Program-made: the position numbers and the translations under genes | Notes under the pieces: model-generated | Database searches by the model: none | Told to the model about the DNA's origin: nothing | Seen by the model: only the letters and a program-made list of their open reading frames with translations | Shown here: positions 1,692 to 21,677 of the stretch, one piece after another | How positions within the stretch are numbered: the stretch's first letter is position 1 | Layout of the letters: each line of letters starts with the position of its first letter | Source of the DNA: Caldicellulosiruptor danielii | GTDB taxonomy: Bacteria; Bacillota; Thermoanaerobacteria; Caldicellulosiruptorales; Caldicellulosiruptoraceae | DNA: 64,000 nucleotides | Direction of reading: 5' to 3' | Assembly: GCF_034343125.1 (NCBI RefSeq) | Contig: NZ_CP139957.1 | Location: forward strand, 2,102,001 to 2,166,000

Positions 1692-1725
1692 AAAAAGCCT
1701 CTGGTACAAAATCCAGAGGCTTTTT
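1692..1725 (-). terminator. Intrinsic terminator after the coupling-protein gene
   Basis: A 13-bp perfect stem AAAAAGCCTCTGG / CCAGAGGCTTTTT with an 8-nt loop, starting at the stop codon of the coupling-protein gene. It is A/T-flanked so could act in both directions. The stem base AGCC/GGCT recurs in other hairpins of this ICE. Confidence 0.75.
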
Positions 1726-3635
1726 CACAGCAATTCGTCTTCTTCACCTGTAGTTTGCTGGTTTTGCAGTTGTGGTTCCTGCTGGGCTGTCAACTGTGGG
1801 GATTGTTGTACAGTCAGTTGCCCGGACTGTTGCTGGGTTTGAGTCTGCCACGACTGCCCTGTCTGCACCTGATACTGGGCTGTTAACCTCGCCTGTTCTT
1901 TTATCGCCTCTATCGCCCAGTCCCTTTCATACTCCCTTACTCCCCTCCTGATAAGTTCCTTGCTCTCTCTCAGTTCATCTATGTCAACCTTATCCACTAT
2001 CAGCGGTTTCTGTCCCCTTACCATCACTATCGCCTTACTGTTCTCAAATCGCAATACCTCGTCTGCGTTCAACAACTGTCTCTTCCCCACTGACTGCGTT
2101 ATCCTGTCTATCTCCGTCAACCCTTCAAGCCCGCCTTGCCTCGATATGGACCTCGTGTGTATCGACTTTGTCCCCAAAAGTTCCGATACATACTCCGCTG
2201 TCTTTAAATCATTCGCTCCTAAAAAGTACTTGGTGTCGCAGCACCCTATTATGTTCTCCCAGTCAAGGGGATATATCTTCGCTAATTGGCCAAGGCTTTG
2301 GAATATAACACTGCAATGCAGTCTTCTGGAACGTATTGTAGCAATCTTTTCTTGAAACTCTGGTATCTCACCTATGTTCGGAAACTCATCAAGCAGGAAA
2401 TATACCTCTCTCGCTTTTATTTCAGGGTCAACTGTCGTGTCATGCAAATTGACAAGCTTTATAAACAAAAAGCTGAAAAACAGTGAACTCAAAAAGCTAA
2501 ATGCCCTGTGTGTGTCGCTGATAATACAAAAATACGCTACCTTTCGTCTCTTTGGAGCTTCTAAGTCTATATCGCTCACTTCCGTCATCTTCTGCACAAG
2601 CTTGTTCTGAAATACCTGCAACCTTGTCCCAAGCCCTATTATAACTCCTGTCCTTACCTGCTCCGATGCCTGCGCAAATATGTTATATGCCATCTTCGAT
2701 GCACGGTCGTTCGGTATGCCCATAAACATGCTCTGCAGCCCTGCCATGTTCGTTGTTGCGAGTAACTTGTATAGTTCTCCTAAATTCTGTTCTTCTGGTG
2801 GTCTGGTTTCTTTAATGTACAGCACAAGCGCCTTGAGCAGATTCAACTCTGCCCTGTCCCAGAATGGGTCTCCACCTGCCTTCTTCATACCCGTTTGCGT
2901 ATTCCTAATCACTACATCCGCAAATACTGAAGCATCCATATCATCTGCTACTGCGTCCAGTGGGTTCCACCGGTCTGAACATTCAATGTTCACCAGATTC
3001 AATGCCTTCACATCATACCCCTGCCTCTCAAGCCATACCGCCATGTCCTCAAATAATTCACCCTTTGGATCGGTTATTATCATGCTCTGCCCCATCTGCG
3101 CTATCTTGATTATGTTCGGTCTTGCAAATGTCCTCGACTTGCCTGTACCAGGTGCACCAAATATCGCTATGTGCTTGTTGTACTTCGTGTCCGCCGGCAG
3201 TATCACATGCTCTCCTCTTACCTTCCCCAGTAGTATCCCTTTGTTGTTGTATCCAAACTTGAATACCTTCCTCGCTTCATTATGGCTCATCCAGTCCGCT
3301 GTCCCATATGTTCCCCGCTCGTCTGTCGCTACCCCCTTCCCAAAATGTATCTTGAGTTCCTCTCTGTACGCAAACACAAATACTACCACTACCACTAACA
3401 GCACTGTGCTTATTATTAGCCATAATTTCGCTACTGCAGAGTTTGTTAACACCTTTTGAATTGCTGCTACTGGGTCGGTTTGTATCTCTGCCTTCGGTGC
3501 CTTCCCCGACATAATTGCCTCCCACGAACTGTTATCCACTGCACTCGTCAGCACCCCTGAAAACATACCTACTAAATACGCCATTATCAAATAGTATATC
3601 ACCAGTATCGCCACTATACCCAATGCCTTCTTCAT
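1725..3635 (-). CDS. VirD4/TraG-type conjugative coupling ATPase (T4CP)
   Basis: A 636-residue inner-membrane ATPase that links the relaxase-DNA complex to the type IV channel. It has two N-terminal membrane helices (about 5-30 and 71-90), Walker A GAPGTGKSR (160-168), the VirD4 motif ITDPKGEL (187-194), and Walker B VYFLLDEFPN (411-420) followed by the family's QSLGQL segment. The C-terminal ~50 residues are Gln/Thr-rich low complexity. The ATG overlaps the upstream stop as ATGA and has a GAGGTGAT site, implying translational coupling to the wHTH gene. Confidence 0.95.
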   Translation of the reverse strand: MKKALGIVAILVIYYLIMAYLVGMFSGVLTSAVDNSSWEAIMSGKAPKAEIQTDPVAAIQKVLTNSAVAKLWLIISTVLLVVVVVFVFAYREELKIHFGKGVATDERGTYGTADWMSHNEARKVFKFGYNNKGILLGKVRGEHVILPADTKYNKHIAIFGAPGTGKSRTFARPNIIKIAQMGQSMIITDPKGELFEDMAVWLERQGYDVKALNLVNIECSDRWNPLDAVADDMDASVFADVVIRNTQTGMKKAGGDPFWDRAELNLLKALVLYIKETRPPEEQNLGELYKLLATTNMAGLQSMFMGIPNDRASKMAYNIFAQASEQVRTGVIIGLGTRLQVFQNKLVQKMTEVSDIDLEAPKRRKVAYFCIISDTHRAFSFLSSLFFSFLFIKLVNLHDTTVDPEIKAREVYFLLDEFPNIGEIPEFQEKIATIRSRRLHCSVIFQSLGQLAKIYPLDWENIIGCCDTKYFLGANDLKTAEYVSELLGTKSIHTRSISRQGGLEGLTEIDRITQSVGKRQLLNADEVLRFENSKAIVMVRGQKPLIVDKVDIDELRESKELIRRGVREYERDWAIEAIKEQARLTAQYQVQTGQSWQTQTQQQSGQLTVQQSPQLTAQQEPQLQNQQTTGEEDELL

Positions 3636-6249: not shown

Positions 6250-7194
6250 TTAAGCATCCAATAACCTTAAAAATCCCCTTGCGTTTGCAAATTGAGCATT
6301 GTCAAGTACCTGTACATTTTCGAAGGTTCTTTGCAGTATAGATGCAGCATAGAAAGCACCGCCGCCAGCAACAAAAATACCGCCGAGTGAGTTAAGTTCG
6401 CTGTGAAGTTTTTTGAGCACTGACTGTACTATGTCATTAGCAACTGCGTGGTACACATCGCTTTTCATCTCTTCGATGTTTATATTTCTGCCACGAACGG
6501 GTATGGTTGAACGTTCGTGAATGTCCATAAGAAATTTGGAGTCATAGCTAATATTAAATTTTCTTTCAAAAAGCAGGCTTAGTTTTTCAATTGCAAGTGA
6601 CATTCCCTTATCGACTGTGAAGCACAGGTCAAGTACAGGTTCAATATTCTCTCCCTCAATTTCGACAGTCACAACATCGGTTGTTCTGAACCCAACATCG
6701 ACCAAGCAGTATCTACCGTTGAGCTGCTGGTCAAGGGTGAAGAATGCTCCAACGCCTTGAGGAAAAACCTCACACCTGACAATGTGATAGTTATGAGCAA
6801 CATTGTCTTTGTCTACAATTGTATCTTCTGAGTATTCAAAGTAGTCCTTGACCTTGTCACGGAGCAATTTGTAAAACATAAGCGGAAGTCCTAACCCCAG
6901 TTCGACTTCCCCTTCAGTGATTCCTGTAGCCAGAAATGATGTGAGCACAAGTATTCTTGCAAAGTTAGAAGTAAATCTTTCTGGTGTGAAATTAGTTTCT
7001 GGTGCAATAGAATCCAGTGCTGCCTTCCCAACGGCATATGTTTGATTGTTGTAGTTGATATAGTAATCTTTGAATGTGCCAAAGCCCAAGTCGGTGAGGA
7101 CTGTCTTTGCCACTGCGGATGGGAAAACAACTTCTTTCTCCTGTTCAGAAACAGCTTTTGTAAAACCAAAGCCTATATCAACAGCGCATTTCAT
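6250..7194 (-). CDS. parM: ParM/StbA-like actin ATPase for DNA segregation
   Basis: 314 residues from the ATG at 7192-7194, which has an AAGGGGG site. The frame is open to 7404 but that extension overlaps a terminator and has no motif. It shows the actin-fold phosphate loops DIGFGFTK (N-terminus) and LVDVGFRTTDV (middle), and the adenosine motif IFVAGGGAF near the C-terminus. Such proteins polymerise to push plasmid copies apart; in an ICE they stabilise the excised replicating circle. Followed by the small parR-like gene; a 180-bp gap with a CCCTGCTGGG / CCCAGCAGGG inverted repeat separates them. Confidence 0.88.
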   Translation of the reverse strand: MKCAVDIGFGFTKAVSEQEKEVVFPSAVAKTVLTDLGFGTFKDYYINYNNQTYAVGKAALDSIAPETNFTPERFTSNFARILVLTSFLATGITEGEVELGLGLPLMFYKLLRDKVKDYFEYSEDTIVDKDNVAHNYHIVRCEVFPQGVGAFFTLDQQLNGRYCLVDVGFRTTDVVTVEIEGENIEPVLDLCFTVDKGMSLAIEKLSLLFERKFNISYDSKFLMDIHERSTIPVRGRNINIEEMKSDVYHAVANDIVQSVLKKLHSELNSLGGIFVAGGGAFYAASILQRTFENVQVLDNAQFANARGFLRLLDA

Positions 7195-7482
7195 TTTATC
7201 AATCCCCCTTCTTGTTAATAATTTTGTGGATATTTTGTATTCCTGAAAACAAAAAATCCCGTAGACCTTTGAAGACCTACGGGTTTTCATGTCGGTTGTT
7301 TTTTGAGCAAAATTTTGGGTAAAATTTTGAGTATAGAAGCCGGTTGTTCGCTTTTTTGTTCGGTAGACTGTGTGATAAACTGTAATTGAAGAGTTCGCAA
7401 ACATATAGTTTGCCCATAAGGAGTTTGCATAGTAAAGGGGAGAATGGGACCCTCCCCCCTTATGTGAAATATGAACCTCACA
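7195..7482. promoter_or_regulatory. parM leader region with terminator and short repeats
   Basis: About 290 bp upstream of parM. A hairpin CCCGTAG / CTACGGG (7258-7264 / 7277-7283) is followed on the minus strand by ATTTTTTGTTTT, a good intrinsic terminator just before parM. Upstream are two AAAATTTTG copies and two CGGTTGTT copies (7287-7350), and CAAAC-N5-GTTTG at 7398-7412. Direct repeats upstream of parM are where parC centromeres usually lie, but these are few and short. No gene is convincing in this stretch. Confidence 0.45.
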
Positions 7483-7508
7483 AGCCCTGAAGTTTTATCT
7501 TCAGGGCT
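7483..7508. terminator. Hairpin at the stop of the zinc-ribbon gene
   Basis: A 10-bp perfect stem AGCCCTGAAG / CTTCAGGGCT with a 6-nt loop. The stop codon of the leftward gene lies within it. The T-run lies on the plus-strand side, so as a leftward terminator it is weak; it may mainly protect mRNA ends. Confidence 0.5.
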
Positions 7509-8046
7509 TTTTTGATGTTGCAAGCAATTTTTTCTGGACAATTCGCTTTTTTATTTCTTCCCATTCCTGCTGTGTTATAACATAATCATTGGACATTTGC
7601 AAAAAGGCTATTAGTTTGTCTTCTATCCAGTCAGCATACACTACATCTCCACAACTTCTAACAACTGTTGCAAACACTTCTTTGTCAAGTTTAAAATTTC
7701 TAAACCCCAAATCTCTGAAATAGTACTGGATGTTCCTCATTTGCTTTTCGGTAAACAATACTTCAATATTGATTTCCTTGTTGTTGAACGTGAGAAACAG
7801 AACATTTACTGGTTCTTTTTCAATAATGTATCTTTCAACATAGTCCCACAGACTTCTGTTAAGCAATTGTTGGTAGTGTTTTTCGCAGAATCGGACTCCT
7901 GCACGGTGAAGTTTATACATAGCTTTTTCTTTGCAGCCAGAAACTTCGCAAAGCACGTTGTCAGATGTTTCATACACAATTGACTCTTTTTTGTTGCTTT
8001 TTGGAAACAGAAGTGCAATTCGTGCTCTATCAAGTACGTCAGTCAT
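7501..8046 (-). CDS. Unknown protein with Cys4-type zinc site (paralogue 1)
   Basis: 181 residues. C33-x4-C38 ... C54-x2-H57 forms a probable zinc-binding site at the N-terminus; the C-terminus has DYVITQQEWEEIKKR. The next gene upstream has the same plan (CxxxxC...CxxH and a YIITREEWQEIKER tail), so the two are tandem paralogues. The ATG overlaps the upstream stop by one base (TAATG), so they are translated together. No family is recognised. A ParMR accessory or T4SS regulator role is possible but unsupported. Confidence 0.7.
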   Translation of the reverse strand: MTDVLDRARIALLFPKSNKKESIVYETSDNVLCEVSGCKEKAMYKLHRAGVRFCEKHYQQLLNRSLWDYVERYIIEKEPVNVLFLTFNNKEINIEVLFTEKQMRNIQYYFRDLGFRNFKLDKEVFATVVRSCGDVVYADWIEDKLIAFLQMSNDYVITQQEWEEIKKRIVQKKLLATSKKP

Positions 8047-8585
8047 TACACGAATTCCCCCAATCTTTCTTTAATCTCCTGCCACTCTTCCCTGGTTATG
8101 ATGTACTCATCGTTTGTTTCATCGAGGTAGTATACAAATATGATGCTGCCAACAACATCAGCATATGCTATTCTTTCTTGAGTTCTCAGTAAACTCAAAA
8201 ACACATCAGTGGTTAGTATTTCGTTCTCTTCTAAGATTCCTGTATCTTTCAAAAACTTCTCTGCTTCAAAAACAAGACTTATATCACCCAGTTTTGTTAC
8301 TTTAATCTTTTTATCATTTATTACAACCGGTATCTCAACTGTTTTTGGAGAATCTATGATATTTAGCAACGCATACTCCATAGTGTTTGCCTTGACATAG
8401 TCAAAGTGTTTTTTGCACAGATAAATTGTCTCTTCTGGTTCTTCATATTCAATTTTGTGCTCTGCACTTTCTATGCACTCAGGTTCAGAACAAATAAAAC
8501 CAGAGGTATTGCTTAATCTTGACACCTTTACGCCGAACTCACCGATATCAACAGCAACATCAATTAAGCTCCATCTTTTTTTCAA
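8046..8585 (-). CDS. Unknown protein with Cys3His zinc site (paralogue 2)
   Basis: 179 residues with C32-x4-C37 ... C57-x2-H60 and a C-terminal YIITREEWQEIKER, closely matching the following gene. The N-terminal 30 residues include AVDIGEFGVKVSRLS, which faintly recalls an actin phosphate loop but lacks the rest of that fold. Probably arose by tandem duplication. It lies after the VirB6-like gene and a terminator, so it may start its own unit with the parMR genes. Confidence 0.7.
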   Translation of the reverse strand: MKKRWSLIDVAVDIGEFGVKVSRLSNTSGFICSEPECIESAEHKIEYEEPEETIYLCKKHFDYVKANTMEYALLNIIDSPKTVEIPVVINDKKIKVTKLGDISLVFEAEKFLKDTGILEENEILTTDVFLSLLRTQERIAYADVVGSIIFVYYLDETNDEYIITREEWQEIKERLGEFV

Positions 8586-8712: not shown

Positions 8713-10866
8713 TTAGACTTTGAATATAAAGGCTTCTGCTGCATTTCTGTATGGGTGTTTTTTGTAGAAGTACGTTTCAAAACTTTCTGCACCCTTACCC
8801 ATTCGCAAAGACGCACCCAACTTACTAATACCAAGTTGTTTTTCTGTAACTTCTCTTTCTTTTTTAAATGCCTCATGCAGACTCTGGACTGTATCAGCAA
8901 AATCTACTGGTACAGGACTACCTTTTTCATTAAGGAATTGGACAACCTTATCGACCTTGCCTGTTTTAATTGCTTCTGTTAGCAAGTGCCCTTTTTCATT
9001 CTGTGTCAGGAAGTTAGAAACAGGTGCGATTTTTTGCATAAGTTTCCCATAATTCGGGTCAGTTGCCATCCTATGCAGTGTCGCATAGTCCATTGCCTGC
9101 CCTATCTTTGTGCTACTGCCTGCTATTTTCAAAGCTGAACCTGCAACCGAAGCAAATGCAGCAAACATTGGGTTGTCCATATGAGTAGCATTTGCAATAT
9201 GATGCAAAGCATTACCTGCCTTATACAATACACTACTGCCTGCAAACGCTCCAAAGCTCTGTAGAAACGCTTTGCGTGTCAAATCTGTACCGGCATATTC
9301 GTTTCTTGCTTTTGCAATCTCTTCTGAAAAACCTGATGCTTTAGAAGTTCCAGCTGAAGTTGAGGCGGTTGCAGTTGCAAGTCCACTTCCTACAGCACCA
9401 CCAAAACTGCCGCCAGTAGGTGTACCTGTTTTTGTTGTAGCAGTGCTAACTTCACTACCACCAGTTGTACCTGCAGTTGTACCTGTAGTTTCGGTTTTTG
9501 CTTTAGCACCAGAGAATGCATGTGCAAGCGATGTTGTTGAACCTTTTATCATTGGGAAAACACCGGTGAAAAACGGATTGACAGCATTTTCTTCGTTTAT
9601 CCCGCTCATTCTCTGGAACCAGTTCTGCAGCATGTTTCTTAGTGTTCCGCCAAGTTGTGGAAGCATCCACATTGCCAAAAGTGAGAAGAACCAACCACTA
9701 AACCCAGCTCCGTTTATAAGGTGCAATATTGCTAAAAGTGCAAATGCATAGAAGAAACCCATGGAAGCATTGGTGATTATTTCACCTATCCATACATTCA
9801 TGACGTTGGAGTCTTTCTTGACACCCCAGAGTGCTGCTGCTATTGGAGCGAATAAGAAGAAAACTCCGAGAACAATCTTCCTGACAAGGAATATCATGTT
9901 CAATTTGAAAAACATATAAGCATACATAACCTTGACAATTGCCGTATTGAGCAGGTTCTGAGTATTTACCTGTGATATAAACGTGTCTACGTCTGAACTT
10001 GTTGCAAAATTGTTGTTTCCCATGTAGGTATATTCAGCCTGTACATATCTGTATAGCCAGCCAGTAAGCAGGTCAAAGAATTTGCAAAGATACGCAAATA
10101 TTAATGGATATGCAGCAATAAGAAGAATAACCTCAAACCATGTATAAATCTCTTCCATCAGGTCAGCACGTTTTCTTGCACTGTAACCTGATGCAATTAA
10201 CTGTATTGCGGTTTTACCAATCATTACTGCTATAAACGCTGTTGCAACAAGTGTAACCAGCCAGTAGAAACTTAACATAAACTTGTACTGGTCCTCTGTA
10301 AAAACTGATCCAGAACTAAAAAGCAATTCACTTATTGGTTTGAATCCGATGACCTTACCGACCCATACAAACAAATTTGTTATACCGTTTAGAATTGCAA
10401 CAATAGCATGAACGATAAAGTTGTCTTCACCGTTGTCTTCAGCGGTTGCTTCTGGACCAGCTCCTGGTGGTGTACTTGTTCTGGGTAGTTCAAAAGCTTT
10501 ATAGAACTTATCTTCAAAGCCTACAACAAGCCCTATAACTGTTGTTAGTATCGTGAGTATTATTGAACCAATGATGACATACTTGAGCCAGTCATAGGTT
10601 TTTGCAGCTTCCTCTGAGTTTTTTACAATTGCAAATCTGATACCGATTATCATAACAGTAATGACTGCAAAGGCTATGCCGACTATCATAAAGATGTTCG
10701 AAATATTAGAAACAAGTTGCCTGCCAGATACTGCTGGCAGTTGCGATTGTGGTAACCCTCCTGTCTCATCAGTACCCGCAAAAGCCAAATGAGATAGAAA
10801 TAAAAAAACGAGTCCTGACAGAGTACCTGTCAGGACTTTGAACCTGTTTTTTGCATTTGCACCCAT
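8713..10866 (-). CDS. VirB6/TrbL-like conjugation channel protein with a VirB2-like N-terminus
   Basis: 717 residues. A signal peptide ends near AFAG, followed by two hydrophobic helices (about 50-80 and 93-115) laid out as in VirB2/TrbC pilins. Then come at least six membrane helices (about 150-420) typical of VirB6/TrbL polytopic channel proteins. The C-terminal third is a Thr/Gly/Ala-rich cytoplasmic or surface segment. AAGGAGGG precedes the ATG. The start overlaps the JAMM-like gene by 37 bp. The pilin-like head on a VirB6-like body is noteworthy, as two separate pilin-like genes exist upstream. Confidence 0.8.
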   Translation of the reverse strand: MGANAKNRFKVLTGTLSGLVFLFLSHLAFAGTDETGGLPQSQLPAVSGRQLVSNISNIFMIVGIAFAVITVMIIGIRFAIVKNSEEAAKTYDWLKYVIIGSIILTILTTVIGLVVGFEDKFYKAFELPRTSTPPGAGPEATAEDNGEDNFIVHAIVAILNGITNLFVWVGKVIGFKPISELLFSSGSVFTEDQYKFMLSFYWLVTLVATAFIAVMIGKTAIQLIASGYSARKRADLMEEIYTWFEVILLIAAYPLIFAYLCKFFDLLTGWLYRYVQAEYTYMGNNNFATSSDVDTFISQVNTQNLLNTAIVKVMYAYMFFKLNMIFLVRKIVLGVFFLFAPIAAALWGVKKDSNVMNVWIGEIITNASMGFFYAFALLAILHLINGAGFSGWFFSLLAMWMLPQLGGTLRNMLQNWFQRMSGINEENAVNPFFTGVFPMIKGSTTSLAHAFSGAKAKTETTGTTAGTTGGSEVSTATTKTGTPTGGSFGGAVGSGLATATASTSAGTSKASGFSEEIAKARNEYAGTDLTRKAFLQSFGAFAGSSVLYKAGNALHHIANATHMDNPMFAAFASVAGSALKIAGSSTKIGQAMDYATLHRMATDPNYGKLMQKIAPVSNFLTQNEKGHLLTEAIKTGKVDKVVQFLNEKGSPVPVDFADTVQSLHEAFKKEREVTEKQLGISKLGASLRMGKGAESFETYFYKKHPYRNAAEAFIFKV

Positions 10867-11894
10867 TCTTTAAAACCCTCCTTTTGGCTTTTTATTCTTG
10901 GCTGCTTGTCTTTGTATTTCAGTTTAATTCCCAGCAAGGTTGGGTGCAATTGCTCATCCTTTCTGATTGCATTGTATACTTCGTTGAAGTATTCTTTGGG
11001 GTAAATTTCTTTTAACAACTTCTTTGAGTGACTGTACCAATTCCCTCTTGCGTAAATCTTGTCAGGAGAAATTCCTCTTGCATATTCCCGCTCAAATGTT
11101 GTCAAATCCATTACGTAGCATCGAGTACCAATCATCCCCGGTATTATAAGTGCATATTTGACTTCTACTGGTGCAATCAGGTGTCGCAATCCCATATAGT
11201 GTAGCATGTCTTCGTTGGATGGGCATGTTGCTACGGAATAAAGATATTCTTCATGTGTTCCGTACTCTAAATCTACTGATGCTGTATGTGTATGTGCCCA
11301 CACTACCTTTTTACACTGCCCATTGAACGAAGTATTATACGAATACACCACTTCGTGACAGTTTGGCTTTACACAGTTGAATATTCCCACACTATCTATT
11401 GTGGCAACAAGTAGTTTGTCGTTTTCATCGAGCAAAAGAGTCATTGAGAGTTCACGTTCCATGGTGAGCTTTTTGGACTTTATCCCGTTAAACAGCATCA
11501 TCCTGTAAAATACTTTCAATGCGTCATCTATGGTCTTGATGTAAATATCTTTTCTGGGTTCAAGTATTAAACCTAAATTGTATCTCACAATGCGTGGTAG
11601 GAATATAGAGTTTGGTCCATAAATCGTAAAATTTTTCTTGACCCAGTAGAATGTTTTCTTTGCAAGATTAAAAGCAAAATAGATTATAGGTGAGAGAAAA
11701 ATCATTTCGATTACAAAATCAGTTACCTGGTCACTATACATAAAGTGTACAAATTGATTCCATTTGATATTGAGCCACAACTGTGGATCTACAACAAAAG
11801 CCCTGAATTCGTTTGAAAGTGTTTGAATAATCTGTTGTACGTACAAACATATTGTTTGCCAAAACTGTTGTGCGTGCAAAAGTGCGGTATTCAT
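10830..11894 (-). CDS. Membrane-anchored protein with a JAMM-like metalloprotease motif
   Basis: 354 residues from the ATG at 11892-11894 (AAGGGG lies 9 nt upstream; an ATG three codons earlier abuts that site). One hydrophobic helix at about 60-80. The C-terminal half has an early Glu in an EL-x4-LLLDE strand (E148), then HTHT (H201, H203) and CPSNED (S226, D229). This is the E...HxH...SxxD order of JAB1/MPN/Mov34 metalloproteases, with a longer than usual gap between HxH and S. The known fold is a Zn isopeptidase/protease; here activity and substrate are inference. It sits between virB4 and the VirB6-like gene, so it may process or assemble transfer proteins. Confidence 0.6.
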   Translation of the reverse strand: MNTALLHAQQFWQTICLYVQQIIQTLSNEFRAFVVDPQLWLNIKWNQFVHFMYSDQVTDFVIEMIFLSPIIYFAFNLAKKTFYWVKKNFTIYGPNSIFLPRIVRYNLGLILEPRKDIYIKTIDDALKVFYRMMLFNGIKSKKLTMERELSMTLLLDENDKLLVATIDSVGIFNCVKPNCHEVVYSYNTSFNGQCKKVVWAHTHTASVDLEYGTHEEYLYSVATCPSNEDMLHYMGLRHLIAPVEVKYALIIPGMIGTRCYVMDLTTFEREYARGISPDKIYARGNWYSHSKKLLKEIYPKEYFNEVYNAIRKDEQLHPTLLGIKLKYKDKQPRIKSQKEGFKEWVQMQKTGSKS

Positions 11895-11969
11895 AAAAAA
11901 CATCCCCTTACTGTTTTAATTTGTTCTATTATCTTTATACCGCACTTTTTAAATTTTCGACAAAAAATT

Positions 11970-13850
11970 TTAGAAATTGGTTGTTGTAACATAGTCCCAT
12001 TCAAAGCTGAACGGTGTAATTTGCAGTGCAACTTTTTCAAGTGGGTTTACTAGAATTGCCTGACCCTTGTTGGCTGTAATAAGGAAATTTCTTGCGGCGT
12101 CCGACAGTTTGAAGTATTCTGCTGTTTCGCTTGCGAGGTCCGGCTCTTGCTTGAGCAAAAACTTGGTGTGGCACATATTGAGCATTGTTCTTCCCGCGTC
12201 TGTCCTTAAAAACTCCAAGATTGTTTGTGAAGCGACCATAAGCGATATTCTGTACTTTCTTCCACGTCGTGAAAGTGATTCTAAGTAATCATTGGAACTT
12301 TCGTACTTCGTGAACATCCATGCCTCATCAAACATAACCATTTTCTTTCTCTTTTTCATTCTCTCATGTGAAAACTTGTTCCAAATCCAGTTCATGATAA
12401 CAACCGAAGCAAAGAATTTCAAGAATTCATCCTTGTCAAACTCCTTTAGATTGAATCCAATAATTCTATCCTTTTCTTGTATGTCAACACTGCTCTGGCA
12501 GTCGAACAGGCTCAAAGTTCCTTCGCCTGTGAAAATTTCAAGTACATCAGAGAGTTGTTTTGTTTCTTCATGGTTTGCGAGTTCTCTTTTCAGGTCGCTC
12601 AGTGTTGGGAGTCGTTTTTTGATTTTCCCAATATAGATTTGACCTGACTCATCGACGTCCATGTCTGTGTAGAGCGATGCTGGGTCTGTTGTAATACCGT
12701 AGTCGCTGTATAACTTCCTCACAACACGTTCTATGATTGCAAGCTGTATACCGTCAAGTCTTTTCCCCACGAAACTCTCTGAAATTATACCAAGTAAAAA
12801 CCTGATTTCAGAGATTTTCCCTTCGATGTTTAGGAATCTCTTTCCTTCATCTTCTTCAACCTCTAAATCAAACGGGTTTATTCCTGCCTTACCACCTGCT
12901 TTAACTTCGATGTATTTTCCGCCGAGCATGTTTATAAGTTTTTTATATTCGCCTTCCGGGTCAAGGACAGCTGCCCAGAATCCGAACGCTGCACTTCTTG
13001 CCAGTATGATTTTCATTGTGGTTGATTTACCGCTTCCTATTGTGCCAAAGATAGCAATGTGTGGACCGGGCAAACTGTCTGCAAATTGGTTATAAAACAC
13101 TGGAGACCCTGTTGTTAGGTTGTAACCCAGAAATACTCCACCCTCATAATATACTTCAGTGTTGCCTGTAGGTACACAACATGCAGCAGCTCCGGTTGTC
13201 ATTGTCTTTGTGTCGTTAATATACAACTGTCTGCCAAGTGGTAGAGTTGTCATATAGCCTTTTAATTGTTCGAATGTAAGAGCTTTCGGTCGCATATTGT
13301 ATGCTTCACATCTGCTCCTGAATTCCTCACACTTCTCTTTGAGTTTTTCTAGACTGTCAGCATAGATTGTTATGAAAACCTGCGCATAAAGGATTTTTTC
13401 CAGGTTTCGCTGCAAGGATGCTCTTAACATTTCAAAGTCTTCTGCCTGTTGAATTTTCTCATAGTCGGGCTCTGTTCTTTCATTTTCAAGCCTTATATGT
13501 GCTTTGAGTTTGACAATCATTTTCGTCAGTTTTTTGATAACATCACCTGTATCTGCTGGTTCTAAATAGATTGACATTGAAATTTGTCCGAGATTGAAAA
13601 ATGATTGAAAGAAGGACATATAGATGTCGCTGGGATACACTGAAATTACATAGGTCCTTGCGTACCTTTCTGGACCAAGATAGATGTAATCTTTGCCTTC
13701 TTCTATACAGTCGGGAAGTATCAGGTCTAAAAGTCCAGTCGCATTTTTTGTGAGGGTATTAGGTTCAGGTTCATCATTTCTTTTAAAAGCCGAATCCAGT
13801 TTATTATTTTGCTGGGTTTTCATTGTTGACTTCTTGAATAACTTCATCAT
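11970..13850 (-). CDS. virB4: VirB4/TrbE-type conjugation ATPase
   Basis: 626 residues; a cytoplasmic ATPase energising T4SS assembly. It has an N-terminal VirB4 domain (about 40-230), Walker A GTIGSGKST (269-277), LDPEGEY shortly after, and Walker B KKMVMFDEAWMF (near 510) followed by RRGRKYRISL and ASQ, the usual VirB4 C-terminal signature. Two adjacent ATGs start it with AAAGGGGG upstream. It overlaps the preceding gene by 47 bp, so translation is coupled. It appears complete. Confidence 0.95.
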   Translation of the reverse strand: MMKLFKKSTMKTQQNNKLDSAFKRNDEPEPNTLTKNATGLLDLILPDCIEEGKDYIYLGPERYARTYVISVYPSDIYMSFFQSFFNLGQISMSIYLEPADTGDVIKKLTKMIVKLKAHIRLENERTEPDYEKIQQAEDFEMLRASLQRNLEKILYAQVFITIYADSLEKLKEKCEEFRSRCEAYNMRPKALTFEQLKGYMTTLPLGRQLYINDTKTMTTGAAACCVPTGNTEVYYEGGVFLGYNLTTGSPVFYNQFADSLPGPHIAIFGTIGSGKSTTMKIILARSAAFGFWAAVLDPEGEYKKLINMLGGKYIEVKAGGKAGINPFDLEVEEDEGKRFLNIEGKISEIRFLLGIISESFVGKRLDGIQLAIIERVVRKLYSDYGITTDPASLYTDMDVDESGQIYIGKIKKRLPTLSDLKRELANHEETKQLSDVLEIFTGEGTLSLFDCQSSVDIQEKDRIIGFNLKEFDKDEFLKFFASVVIMNWIWNKFSHERMKKRKKMVMFDEAWMFTKYESSNDYLESLSRRGRKYRISLMVASQTILEFLRTDAGRTMLNMCHTKFLLKQEPDLASETAEYFKLSDAARNFLITANKGQAILVNPLEKVALQITPFSFEWDYVTTTNF

Positions 13851-14613
13851 TTATTGCAATCCCCCTTTGTGAAGTAATAACTAAATCTAAAGCTCCTTTC
13901 TTAATTGCTTCTTCTACTTTGAACACCTGATTTTTATTTAACTCATCGCCGAGTAATTGTAATGCTTCTGGCATAGAAAGCTGGTAAATTTTGAAATCTG
14001 CTTTCTTTAAAAGTGCCACTGCATTTTTAACACGCTGGTTTAGTTTTTCGAAGGCAACTTTTTCGTTGGGTTCTCTCACCCAGATAACCATGTAACTTTT
14101 TCTAACAAGCAATTCTTTTTGCCTCTGCAAGTCTTCAAGTTCAGACTTGAGACTTTGACAGTATTGCCTGAGCGTGTCTGACATAATTACTGCAGGATTT
14201 TTTAAAAACTGCTCTATTTCTTTCACCTGCTGGGCAGTATCCACTCTCTGTGTTGTTGTAAAGAACTGCACAGGACAGTCCAAAGCACGCATTGCTGCTA
14301 TAAGATTTAGTTCCAAAGCTTCCTCTTCAGCTTCACTCATCAGGTCTATATCCTGTGACGACAGGTAGAAAATTCTTGCATATCTGTAGTCGTCCATTAC
14401 AACAGTGCCATCAGGAAGTATTTCTTTTATCCCCAAAAGTTTCTTTAGTTGATTTTTGCTGTTGTTCACACTTTGTTTACCTTGCCCCTGAGTATTGGCA
14501 GTAGACTTTTTAGTGCCTGTCTTTGCAAAATTCAGCAGTCCACTCTTTGAAATATACCAGGATACAACAAGAACCACTCCACCAACAACAAGTATCAGTA
14601 AATCAGATGACAA
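13804..14613 (-). CDS. Membrane-anchored T4SS protein resembling a VirB4 N-terminal domain
   Basis: 269 residues with one N-terminal membrane helix (about 5-22), a polar Gln/Asn/Lys linker, then a domain starting LLGIKEILPDGTVVMDDYRYARI. This reads like the N-terminal domain of TraC/VirB4 ATPases (compare DYIYLGPERYARTYVI in the next gene). It has no Walker motifs. It lies between PrgI and VirB4, overlapping the latter. It may be a duplicated, membrane-tethered N-domain acting as scaffold; family membership is inference. Confidence 0.6.
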   Translation of the reverse strand: MSSDLLILVVGGVVLVVSWYISKSGLLNFAKTGTKKSTANTQGQGKQSVNNSKNQLKKLLGIKEILPDGTVVMDDYRYARIFYLSSQDIDLMSEAEEEALELNLIAAMRALDCPVQFFTTTQRVDTAQQVKEIEQFLKNPAVIMSDTLRQYCQSLKSELEDLQRQKELLVRKSYMVIWVREPNEKVAFEKLNQRVKNAVALLKKADFKIYQLSMPEALQLLGDELNKNQVFKVEEAIKKGALDLVITSQRGIAINDEVIQEVNNENPAK

Positions 14614-14616
14614 GAG

Positions 14617-14910
14617 TTACTCCTCCTCTCTGTTAAGAATTATTCTTTTTCTCGTCATGAAATCATAGTACTTCTTCAGGAAAGTAATAAAGTCATCGCC
14701 GTTAACTTTGACAAAGGCAAATATGCTACACACAGCAATAGTTAGTAGTTCAACTATAAGAGCAATAGCAAACGGTACATGAAAGTTTGAAAGCATAGAA
14801 AACATTGCAAGACTAGGAACAACAAGTATAAGCGTTTGTCGCCATGTTAAAAAACCACCTACTATCTTGTCTTCAAACTTGAATTCGTAAGGTATCCTGT
14901 ACCTTTGCAA
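14617..14910 (-). CDS. prgI: PrgI family conjugation membrane protein
   Basis: 97 residues starting with a YRIPYEF strand and FEDKIVGGFLTWRQ, then two closely spaced membrane helices (about 27-65): the layout of PrgI family proteins found just upstream of VirB4 in Gram-positive conjugation operons (VirB3 equivalent). It is 3 bp from the next start, so clearly in the same operon. Confidence 0.85.
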   Translation of the reverse strand: MQRYRIPYEFKFEDKIVGGFLTWRQTLILVVPSLAMFSMLSNFHVPFAIALIVELLTIAVCSIFAFVKVNGDDFITFLKKYYDFMTRKRIILNREEE

Positions 14911-16324: not shown

Positions 16325-16663
16325 TTATTGTCCTATTGCATTGACAACAAAACCAACTATGGATGCAGCAAAAAATACGAGTATTAGACCTATAATAGTT
16401 CTACCAAGTGCTTTGGCAACCTCTGCTTGTCTCTTTTCATCGTTGATAGCTGCAAGAATTACTCCTCTCAGCATAACAAGTATTACAGCGAGACCTACTG
16501 CAATGATTTGAATCGGTGTTTTTATTTTTGTGATTAAATCTGTAACAACTGCTTTTGTATCTTTGTTTTCAACTATTCCCGTAAAGTTTGTAGCATACAC
16601 AGCAAGATTATAAAGCGCAATTATAATCGAAGTGGTTAACGCTGTTAAAGTTTTCTTTTTCAT
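16325..16663 (-). CDS. VirB2/TrbC-like pilin
   Basis: 112 residues with a signal peptide (MKKKTLTALTTS... to about residue 24), a short polar loop, then two membrane helices (about 48-70 and 86-110) separated by a charged NDEKRQAEVAKALG loop. This is the size and topology of VirB2/TrbC pilin subunits. GGAGGTG precedes the ATG. A second pilin-like gene lies just upstream. Confidence 0.7.
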   Translation of the reverse strand: MKKKTLTALTTSIIIALYNLAVYATNFTGIVENKDTKAVVTDLITKIKTPIQIIAVGLAVILVMLRGVILAAINDEKRQAEVAKALGRTIIGLILVFFAASIVGFVVNAIGQ

Positions 16664-16692
16664 TCTAAAACACCTCCGCTTATTTTATTTTT

Positions 16693-16983
16693 TTATTTAC
16701 CGAATGTGTTGTAGATGACTCCTAGAATATAGGGAGCAAGTAAGTAAATGATGACAACAAAACCAACACCACCTAGAATTGATGCGCCCATTTTCTTGGC
16801 GCTTTGCACATGGAAAATATATCCTACCAGGAGCAATAGAACAGCAATCATAATACCTAAACCCGCAATTGGTTTTATAAAGTTTTGAACTGTCTGCAGG
16901 AGCGTGACAAAAAGCTTAACGAGAATATTTGAAAACTGCTCAGGTGTAACAGGTTCTATAAGTCCATTCAGGTCATTTTTCAA
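16693..16983 (-). CDS. VirB2-like small membrane protein
   Basis: 96 residues from a TTG start (16981-16983) with AAGGGGGTGA 7 nt upstream. Two hydrophobic helices (about 38-62 and 72-92) with a short basic loop (HVQSAKKMG), similar in layout to TrbC/VirB2 and to the next gene, but with no clear signal peptide. Probably a pilin or channel subunit of the same T4SS. Confidence 0.6.
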   Translation of the reverse strand: MKNDLNGLIEPVTPEQFSNILVKLFVTLLQTVQNFIKPIAGLGIMIAVLLLLVGYIFHVQSAKKMGASILGGVGFVVIIYLLAPYILGVIYNTFGK

Positions 16984-18949: not shown

Positions 18950-20134
18950 TTGGCAAGACGTGGAAAAGGCGAAGGAAGCATTTTCAAACGAAAAGATGGT
19001 AGATGGTGCGGTTTCATAACACTTGGTTATGATGAAAAAGGAAATCAAAAAAAGAAGTTTTTTTATGGAAAGACCAGACAGGAGGTAGCAGAAAAAATAA
19101 ATCAAGCCTTGAATGAACTTAAGCAAGGTGTTTTAATTGCTGAAGGAAACATTACTTTAGAAGAGTGGCTAAGGACATGGTTGTGGGAGTATAAAAGACC
19201 GCAGATAAGTGAATCAACATTCGATGACTATGAGAGTATAATAAGGAACCACATAAACCCTGTTTTAGGCAAGTACAAACTCAAGGACTTAAGACCAGAA
19301 CATTTACAGCATCTTTACAATGAAAAGTTTAAAGCCGGATTATCCCCAAGAAGGATTAAGCACATTCATACAATTCTGCATGCATCCTTGGAACAGGCGA
19401 TCAAGAGTGGTTTGATAGTGAGGAATGTTAGTAAAGCAACAACATTGCCGAAGGACACAAAAGAAAAGGAAATAAGAGTACTGACGTTAGAGGAACAGAA
19501 AAAGCTACTGGAAGCTCTGGAAGGTGAAAGGTTAAAGGCGGCATTTATTCTTGCTTTGACAACTGGAATGAGACTGGGGGAGATACTGGGTCTTAAATGG
19601 GACCGGGTTGATTTGGAAAACAAACAGATTACTGTTGTCAGGTCCCTGCGCAGAATCAAGAGTCGGGACAACAGTGAAATAAAAACGAAAACTGTTTTGA
19701 CTCTGAAGGAAGTTAAAAGTGAAAAAGCCAATAGAATTATTCCCATCCCTGATATTGCTTATGAAGAACTTTTGAAGTACAGAGAACAGCAGGAAGAAGA
19801 AAAGAATAAAGCGGGCAGTGCTTACAGGGACAGTGGTTTTGTTTTTACCACTGAGGTAGGCACACCAATTGAACCAAGAAATTTTATAAGAACTTTTGAG
19901 CGGATTGTAAAGAAAGCAGGATTAGATGTGAACTTTCATGCTCTGAGACATACTTTTGCAACAAGACTTTTAGAAAAAAATGTGCATCCGAAAGTTGTTC
20001 AGGAATTACTTGGGCATAGTGATATAACGACGACTTTAAACACCTATTCCCATGTATTGGATACAGTTAAGAAGGAAGCCATTAAAGAGATAGACTGTGT
20101 TTTTACCGAACTTAAAAAGGACAATCCCACATAG
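18950..20134 (+). CDS. int: Tyrosine recombinase / ICE integrase (Tn916 type)
   Basis: 394 residues from a TTG start. N-terminal arm-binding domain (RGKGEGSIFKRKDGRWCG), core-binding domain about 66-160, and a catalytic domain with R208 (TGMRLGE), H330-x-x-R333 (HALRH), H356 (LLGHSD) and Y366 (NTYSHV). All pentad positions I can see are present, so it should be active. It lies 190 bp before the tRNA-Arg fragment and will catalyse integration and excision. Strongly similar to the second integrase at 20478. Confidence 0.95.
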   Translation: MARRGKGEGSIFKRKDGRWCGFITLGYDEKGNQKKKFFYGKTRQEVAEKINQALNELKQGVLIAEGNITLEEWLRTWLWEYKRPQISESTFDDYESIIRNHINPVLGKYKLKDLRPEHLQHLYNEKFKAGLSPRRIKHIHTILHASLEQAIKSGLIVRNVSKATTLPKDTKEKEIRVLTLEEQKKLLEALEGERLKAAFILALTTGMRLGEILGLKWDRVDLENKQITVVRSLRRIKSRDNSEIKTKTVLTLKEVKSEKANRIIPIPDIAYEELLKYREQQEEEKNKAGSAYRDSGFVFTTEVGTPIEPRNFIRTFERIVKKAGLDVNFHALRHTFATRLLEKNVHPKVVQELLGHSDITTTLNTYSHVLDTVKKEAIKEIDCVFTELKKDNPT

Positions 20135-20477: not shown

Positions 20478-21677
20478 TTAGGAGTGATTACCCTTTGTTT
20501 TTATTATATTTTCAAATAAATTGTTCAACTTCATTGCAGCAGCCTTCTTTATTTCCGGCATAACATGGGAATAGATATTTAGAGTTGTTGAGATGTCCTT
20601 ATGTCCTAAAAGCTCTTGTACAACCTTAGGATGTTCATTGGCTTCCAAAAGCCTTGTTGCATATGTGTGCCTCAATGCATGAAAGTTTACGTCAAGATTT
20701 GCCCTTTTAATTATTCGGTAAAATGTCCTTAAAAAATTCCTTGGTTCAATTGGAGTGCCGAGTTCTGTTGCAAATACTAAATTGTTATCTTCATATAGAT
20801 TTCCGGCTTTCAACTTCTCTTCAAGCTGCCTCTTTCGGTGTTCTTTTAGCTCTTCCACAATAGCAGGTGGTATAGGGATTGTTCTTATCCCAGAAGCAGT
20901 TTTAGGTTCTTGAAACGCTAACATGGTTTTTGTCGGCAGGTTTTTATCATATGTTTTTATTCTTTTGAGAGACCTTTTTACTGTTATTGTGCCTTCTTTG
21001 AGATTTACGCAATCCCACTTCAAAGCAAGAAGCTCACCAAGCCTGACTCCACTTGCAAGAGCCAATAAGAAAGCCGGTCTTAGTCTTTCACCTTCCAAAG
21101 CAGCTATAAACCTCTTTTGTTCTTCCAGACTCAGAACTCTTATTTCTTTTTTGTCCTTTGCTTTTGGCAATGTTGTTGCTTCACTTACATTTCTTACAAC
21201 CAGTCCATTCTTTAGCGCTTGGTCTAATGCTGAGTGTAATATAACATGAATGTGCTTTATAGTAGAATACGAAAGTCCACTCTCACATTTAGAATTATAC
21301 AATGCTTGCAAATGTTCAGGTCTTAAATCTTTAAGTTTATAATTTCCTACAGATGGAACAATGTGATTATTGATAATGCCTTCATAATCTTGGAAGGTTG
21401 AAGGTCGCAACGTCTGTTTTTTATATTCCCAAAGCCATGTGTTAAGCCAATCTTTCAATGTTAGCTTTGCAGGGTCAACATAAACACCTGTTGCTATGTC
21501 ATTGAGTGCCTTTGCTATCTTTTCAGCAACCTCTTGCCTTGTCCTGCCATAAAAATACTGCCTCTTTTGTCTGCCGTTTTCGTCTCTTCCTATTGTGATT
21601 TGTCCACACCAGAGCCCGTCTTTCCGTTTGTAAATACTACCTTCATTATTTCCTCTCTTTTTTGTCTTTGTAGGCAT
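20478..21677 (-). CDS. int: Tyrosine recombinase / integrase of the satellite-like element
   Basis: 399 residues with the same plan as the ICE integrase: basic arm-binding N-terminus (NNEGSIYKRKDGLWCG), core-binding domain, and catalytic domain with R212 (GVRLGE), HALRH, LLGHKD and NIYSHV. It reads toward the left attachment core, about 100 bp away. The close relation to the neighbouring integrase explains why both elements use the same tRNA-Arg site. It looks intact. Confidence 0.95.
   Translation of the reverse strand: MPTKTKKRGNNEGSIYKRKDGLWCGQITIGRDENGRQKRQYFYGRTRQEVAEKIAKALNDIATGVYVDPAKLTLKDWLNTWLWEYKKQTLRPSTFQDYEGIINNHIVPSVGNYKLKDLRPEHLQALYNSKCESGLSYSTIKHIHVILHSALDQALKNGLVVRNVSEATTLPKAKDKKEIRVLSLEEQKRFIAALEGERLRPAFLLALASGVRLGELLALKWDCVNLKEGTITVKRSLKRIKTYDKNLPTKTMLAFQEPKTASGIRTIPIPPAIVEELKEHRKRQLEEKLKAGNLYEDNNLVFATELGTPIEPRNFLRTFYRIIKRANLDVNFHALRHTYATRLLEANEHPKVVQELLGHKDISTTLNIYSHVMPEIKKAAAMKLNNLFENIIKTKGNHS

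What the first reader, a model, noticed from the sequence alone, without database searches (positions are those of the whole stretch)
10830..11894. JAMM-like metalloprotease motif in a conjugation operon
E148...HTHT...S226xxD229 fits the JAB1/MPN zinc site within a membrane-anchored protein encoded between virB4 and the VirB6-like gene. I know of no standard T4SS component of this type; it might process pilin or remove a modifier from transfer proteins.
Basis: partly seen in the sequence, partly recalled or inferred. Interest (0 to 1): 0.6.

Follow-up and report, generated by a model that had tools for sequence, protein, structure and literature searches.

The report
Membrane-anchored RadC-like JAMM in T4SS operon
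A gene sandwiched between two core parts of a bacterial DNA-transfer machine encodes a membrane-tethered relative of RadC (a zinc-hydrolase family whose job is unknown), kept by selection in several related elements but absent from most, so it looks like a real lineage-specific add-on whose function is open.

Summary
The gene is on the minus strand (10830-11894) and encodes a 354-aa protein with E148, H201-x-H203 and S226-x-x-D229. It lies between virB4 and a VirB6-like gene, whose start it overlaps by 37 bp. Five intact relatives in the same operon slot (22-37% identical to it) and one decayed copy were found. All five motif residues are invariant among the six intact proteins, and close pairs have dN/dS of 0.07-0.12. 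The family belongs to the RadC clade of JAB/MPN domains. The most conservative member hits Pfam RadC at 5e-11 and PDB 2QLC at 0.0016. Other members sit at the Pfam threshold; the window protein alone is below detection but is tied to the group by motif-independent homology. It differs from ordinary RadC: no HhH domain, a predicted membrane helix (absent in the most distant member), a longer HxH-SxxD loop, and a shared C-terminal tail. It is restricted to one family's elements; a sister element in the same genus has virB4 and virB6 17 bp apart without it. Structure prediction failed (pLDDT 31-39), so the fold rests on homology. Substrate unknown: a peptidase-type role at the channel is my leading guess, nucleic-acid processing the main rival.

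The parts
10830..11894 (-). RadC-like JAMM gene, 354 aa, ATG at 11894, stop at 10830-10832 (in-frame alternative ATG at 11903)
   Evidence: homologues
11661..11717 (-). predicted transmembrane helix, residues 60-78; lysines follow it, so the C-terminal domain is predicted cytoplasmic (positive-inside rule, inference)
   Evidence: hydropathy; also found in L028, L058, L059, L087, not in L077
11115..11576 (-). RadC-like JAB core, about residues 107-260
   Evidence: hhalign of operon proteins against chromosomal RadC; Pfam ranges in relatives
11451..11453 (-). E148, JAMM glutamate
   Evidence: invariant
11286..11294 (-). H201-T-H203, JAMM HxH
   Evidence: invariant H201 and H203
11208..11219 (-). 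S226-x-x-D229, JAMM SxxD
   Evidence: invariant S and D, preceded by invariant P225
10914..10997 (-). conserved C-terminal tail (F303, N308, P318, G322, Y327 invariant), not present in chromosomal RadC
11970..13850 (-). virB4, upstream neighbour
8713..10866 (-). virB6-like gene; its start overlaps the 3' end of the JAMM gene by 37 bp
14617..14910 (-). PrgI (VirB3-like)
   Evidence: Pfam PF12666 7.5e-9
16325..16983 (-). two small pilin-like genes (16693-16983 and 16325-16663; the second hits T4SS_pilin and TrbC above cut-off, the first below it)
1725..3635 (-). VirD4 coupling protein
   Evidence: Pfam PF02534 1e-62

Best explanation
This is a RadC-clade JAMM/MPN zinc hydrolase that one family of Firmicute-type conjugative elements has built into its T4SS operon. 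In most members an N-terminal transmembrane helix stands where ordinary RadC has its DNA-binding HhH part, holding the catalytic domain at the cytoplasmic face of the membrane beside VirB4 and VirB6. Shown by sequence: operon position, membership of the RadC/JAMM lineage, invariant zinc-site residues, purifying selection, lineage restriction, dispensability for this T4SS type at large. Inferred: zinc binding, catalysis, cytoplasmic orientation. Most likely action (inferred): peptide-bond hydrolysis on a T4SS component or transferred protein, as an accessory step. Probability that it is an active RadC-like JAMM hydrolase serving the transfer system: about 0.6; that the substrate is a protein rather than nucleic acid: about 0.4.
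For: Position between virB4 and virB6 in window, L028, L058, L059, L077, L087. E, H, H, S, D invariant. Pfam RadC PF04002: G012 copy 5e-11 (43.1 bits, cut-off 22.1), L004 22.2 bits, L028 22.1, L002 21.3, L003 19.8. hhalign of four operon proteins against 30 chromosomal RadC: probability 94%, E 1e-7; best of 200 column shuffles 2.4%, VirB4 control 0.2%. The G012 copy joins the operon family even with the motif masked on both sides (E about 1e-9) and matches PDB 2QLC, a RadC homologue (0.0016). dN/dS 0.07 and 0.12.
Against: P0001 alone has no Pfam, NCBIfam or credible PDB match, and with the motif positions masked the direct hhalign link to RadC vanishes (1.9%), so the link relies on the motif or on the bridge through the G012 copy. 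No confident model. The window copy lacks the usual P after HxH. To my knowledge no RadC protein has a demonstrated activity. G006 carries the same operon without the gene.
Confidence: 0.6

Rival explanations
1. A RadC-type domain that acts on nucleic acid or nucleotides, for instance on the single strand leaving or entering through the channel.
For: Iyer et al. [quoted passage not shown] RadC domains are frequent on conjugative elements.
Against: The operon proteins lack the HhH part and most have a membrane helix. A 2025 review reports that DALI on a RadC-like domain finds metalloproteases, not nucleases (PMC11981726).
Confidence: 0.25
2. A non-catalytic structural subunit: the RadC fold serves as a docking domain between VirB4 and VirB6.
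For: Fixed position between the two genes and overlap with virB6; fast divergence (22-38% identity) while VirB4 keeps 64-83%, as for an adaptor.
Against: Exact invariance of the complete zinc site across 22%-identical proteins is more than a scaffold needs.
Confidence: 0.2
3. Passenger cargo: a mobile RadC gene of the kind found on many elements that happened to land in the operon and serves general maintenance or anti-defence, not the T4SS.
For: RadC genes ride on elements elsewhere (Vallitalea plasmid pVpro has a JAB-domain gene a few kb upstream of virB4); the copy is decayed in G010 and absent in G006.
Against: Same slot, overlap with virB6 and shared C-terminal tail in two genera; strong purifying selection.
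Confidence: 0.15

Closest known systems
RadC family (Pfam PF04002, RadC-like JAB domain; PDB 2QLC; chromosomal and plasmid RadC)
   Same: E...HxH...PSxxD zinc-site pattern and surrounding strand pattern; the G012 operon copy has the full HNHPxxxxxPSxxD and passes the Pfam cut-off
   Different: no HhH domain, N-terminal membrane helix in most members, extra residues between HxH and SxxD in five of six, conserved C-terminal tail, fixed place in a T4SS operon
JAMM/MPN+ deubiquitinase-type isopeptidases (PfJAMM1, Rpn11, Cap3 of CBASS)
   Same: motif class and inferred fold superfamily
   Different: no detected ubiquitin-like/E1 partner in the operon; RadC clade is thought to lack the ubiquitin-tail groove (PMC5512222)
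RadC domains of conjugative-element polyvalent proteins (Iyer et al. 2017)
   Same: RadC-type JAB on a conjugative element
   Different: not a multidomain polyvalent protein; a membrane-tethered single-domain protein inside the mating-channel operon
Gram-positive T4SS (PrgI, VirB4, VirB6, VirD4 type)
   Same: pilin-like, PrgI, VirB4, VirB6-like, VirD4 genes
   Different: the JAMM gene is absent from the other sampled members of this T4SS type

Membership tests
JAMM/MPN+ metallohydrolases | E, HxH and SxxD zinc-site residues, conserved among homologues | tested here: met
   all five invariant in six intact operon homologues
JAMM/MPN+ metallohydrolases | JAB/MPN fold with the residues clustered around zinc | tested here: inconclusive
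   AlphaFold models pLDDT 38.7 and 31.3, unusable; fold inferred only from homology to RadC
JAMM/MPN+ metallohydrolases | zinc-dependent (iso)peptidase activity | not testable with these tools
   needs purified protein
RadC family PF04002 | match above the Pfam cut-off | tested here: inconclusive
   met for the G012 copy, L004 and borderline L028; just below for L002 and L003; no match for the window protein itself
RadC family PF04002 | homology detectable by profile | tested here: met
   hhalign 94-96%, shuffles at most 2.4%; motif-independent link to the G012 copy
canonical RadC (TIGR00608/NF000642) | full-length RadC with N-terminal HhH and score above NCBIfam cut-off | tested here: not met
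   relatives score 18-37 bits against cut-offs of 134-180; no HhH part
core T4SS component | present in this T4SS type generally | tested here: not met
   absent from G006 and from all more distant VirB4 loci examined

The most novel reading that the evidence does not exclude
A membrane-bound RadC-type JAMM protease is a dedicated T4SS accessory that cuts VirB6, a pilin or a transferred protein at the mating channel, which would be, to my knowledge, the first known job for a RadC-clade enzyme.
Probability: 0.25. Interest if true: 0.75.

Novelty: new variant of a known kind. Interest (0 to 1): 0.42.

Why it matters
RadC is one of the most widespread bacterial families without an agreed function. 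A version built into a conjugation operon, membrane-tethered in most members and without the DNA-binding part, gives a concrete and small place to look for a substrate: the neighbouring channel proteins. Two recent T4SS reviews searched here contain no mention of a JAMM or RadC component.

Tried and rejected
Searches of plasmids, phages and viral contigs with the protein or with the G012 copy gave nothing. Three weak matches elsewhere in the phylum (L024-L026) are ordinary RadC proteins, not next to virB4; L025 is probably on a mobile element. Search of a second class gave nothing, but only 20 genomes were held there and the query had no positive control. A partner system (E1/ubiquitin-like) was looked for by ThiF family: the above-cut-off hits lie far from the window. 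Paper searches for JAMM or RadC with T4SS found no description of such a component.

Full report
Observation. The protein is encoded on the minus strand, 10830-11894, 354 aa from the ATG at 11894. Motif: E148, H201-T-H203, P225-S226-x-x-D229. Upstream is virB4 (11973-13850), downstream a VirB6-like gene (8716-10866) whose start codon lies inside the last 37 bp of this gene. The operon also holds two pilin-like genes and PrgI; an actin-like ParM-type gene (6253-7404) and VirD4 (1728-3635) follow on the same strand.

Homologues. The protein alone matches nothing credible in Pfam, NCBIfam, PHROGs (best 0.14) or the PDB. Whole-genome searches found relatives in four other species of the genus (one decayed) and in a second genus of the family. 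One more came with a virB4 search, on a contig labelled as a Bathyarchaeota MAG. Intact copies: L058 (=L002), L059 (=L003), L087 (=L004), L028, L077 (=L013). The copy in G010 is broken by a stop/frameshift at the HxH motif.

Conservation. Across six intact proteins, 22-37% identical to the window one, 24 of 218 ungapped columns are invariant and include E148, H201, H203, S226 and D229. dN/dS for the two close pairs is 0.07 and 0.12. The window copy has T where the relatives have P after HxH.

Family. The G012 copy, the shortest and most canonical (HNHPNNNVNPSNTD), hits Pfam RadC at 4.9e-11 and PDB 2QLC (RadC homologue) at 0.0016. The others score 19.8-22.2 bits against a cut-off of 22.1. A profile of the four operon proteins without the G012 copy aligns to 30 chromosomal RadC proteins with 94% probability (E 1e-7); the best of 200 column shuffles reached 2.4%, the reversed profile 0.3% and VirB4 0.2%. 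Masking the motif removes that direct signal (1.9%), so I tested the bridge: with the motif masked in both, the operon profile still finds the G012 copy at about 1e-9. The chain operon family - G012 copy - RadC is therefore sound.

Differences from RadC. Chromosomal RadC carries an N-terminal HhH part; the operon proteins do not. Five of six have a hydrophobic helix before the JAB domain (window residues 60-78); the G012 copy has none. The loop between HxH and SxxD is about 10-16 residues longer (not in G012), and all share a C-terminal tail (F303, N308, P318, G322, Y327) missing from RadC. Every searched genome of the class has its own chromosomal RadC besides.

Distribution. Around virB4 loci drawn from 398 genomes of the phylum plus targeted ones, the gene appears only in this family's elements. 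In G006, same genus, virB4 (56% identical) and virB6 are 17 bp apart with nothing between. In G027 and G148 other reading frames without the motif occupy the gap. Thus the slot is variable and the JAMM gene is an accessory of one lineage.

Mechanism. Shown: position, family, conserved zinc-site residues, selection, restriction to one lineage. Inferred: zinc binding, catalysis, cytoplasmic face. Iyer et al. 2017 (PMC5512222) argue that RadC-type JABs lack the ubiquitin-tail groove and may process nucleic acids; a 2025 review (PMC11981726) notes that a RadC-like domain resembles metalloproteases and not nucleases, and that further work is needed on its function. The lack of HhH and the membrane anchor beside VirB6 tilt me mildly to a protein substrate. 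The 'removes a modifier' idea has no support: no E1 or ubiquitin-like gene was noticed in the operon and the genome's above-cut-off ThiF-type genes are elsewhere.

Limits. Structure prediction was restricted to two sequences and failed. The search outside the family was a sample, and the VirB4-based genome scan used only two short patterns.

Noticed in passing
L005 1576-2260 / L088 10020-10788 (G010): A decayed copy of the gene with a stop/frameshift at the HxH motif and with its 5' part joined to an unrelated reading frame; no virB4 match was found within the stretch taken around it.
   Followed up: partly
L028 1-7712: A T4SS operon 77% identical in VirB4 to the window sits on a contig labelled Bathyarchaeota MAG: misbinning of a Firmicute contig is likelier than transfer to archaea.
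   Followed up: no
window 8716-10866: The VirB6-like protein carries a T4SS_pilin-like domain (PF18895, residues 51-113) in its N-terminal part.
   Followed up: no
window 13804-14613: A 269-aa protein before virB4 looks like a split-off N-terminal part of a larger VirB4; in a Clostridioides plasmid (L125) PrgI is followed directly by one longer ATPase gene.
   Followed up: no
window 18950-20134 and 20478-21677: Two similar tyrosine integrases face each other a few hundred bases apart, one beside an XRE regulator and an ImmA-like gene, suggesting two adjoining or recombined elements.
   Followed up: no
window 7501-8585: Two related small proteins with zinc-finger-like cysteine/histidine motifs follow virB6; relatives follow virB6 in sister elements too, including the one lacking the JAMM gene.
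   Followed up: partly
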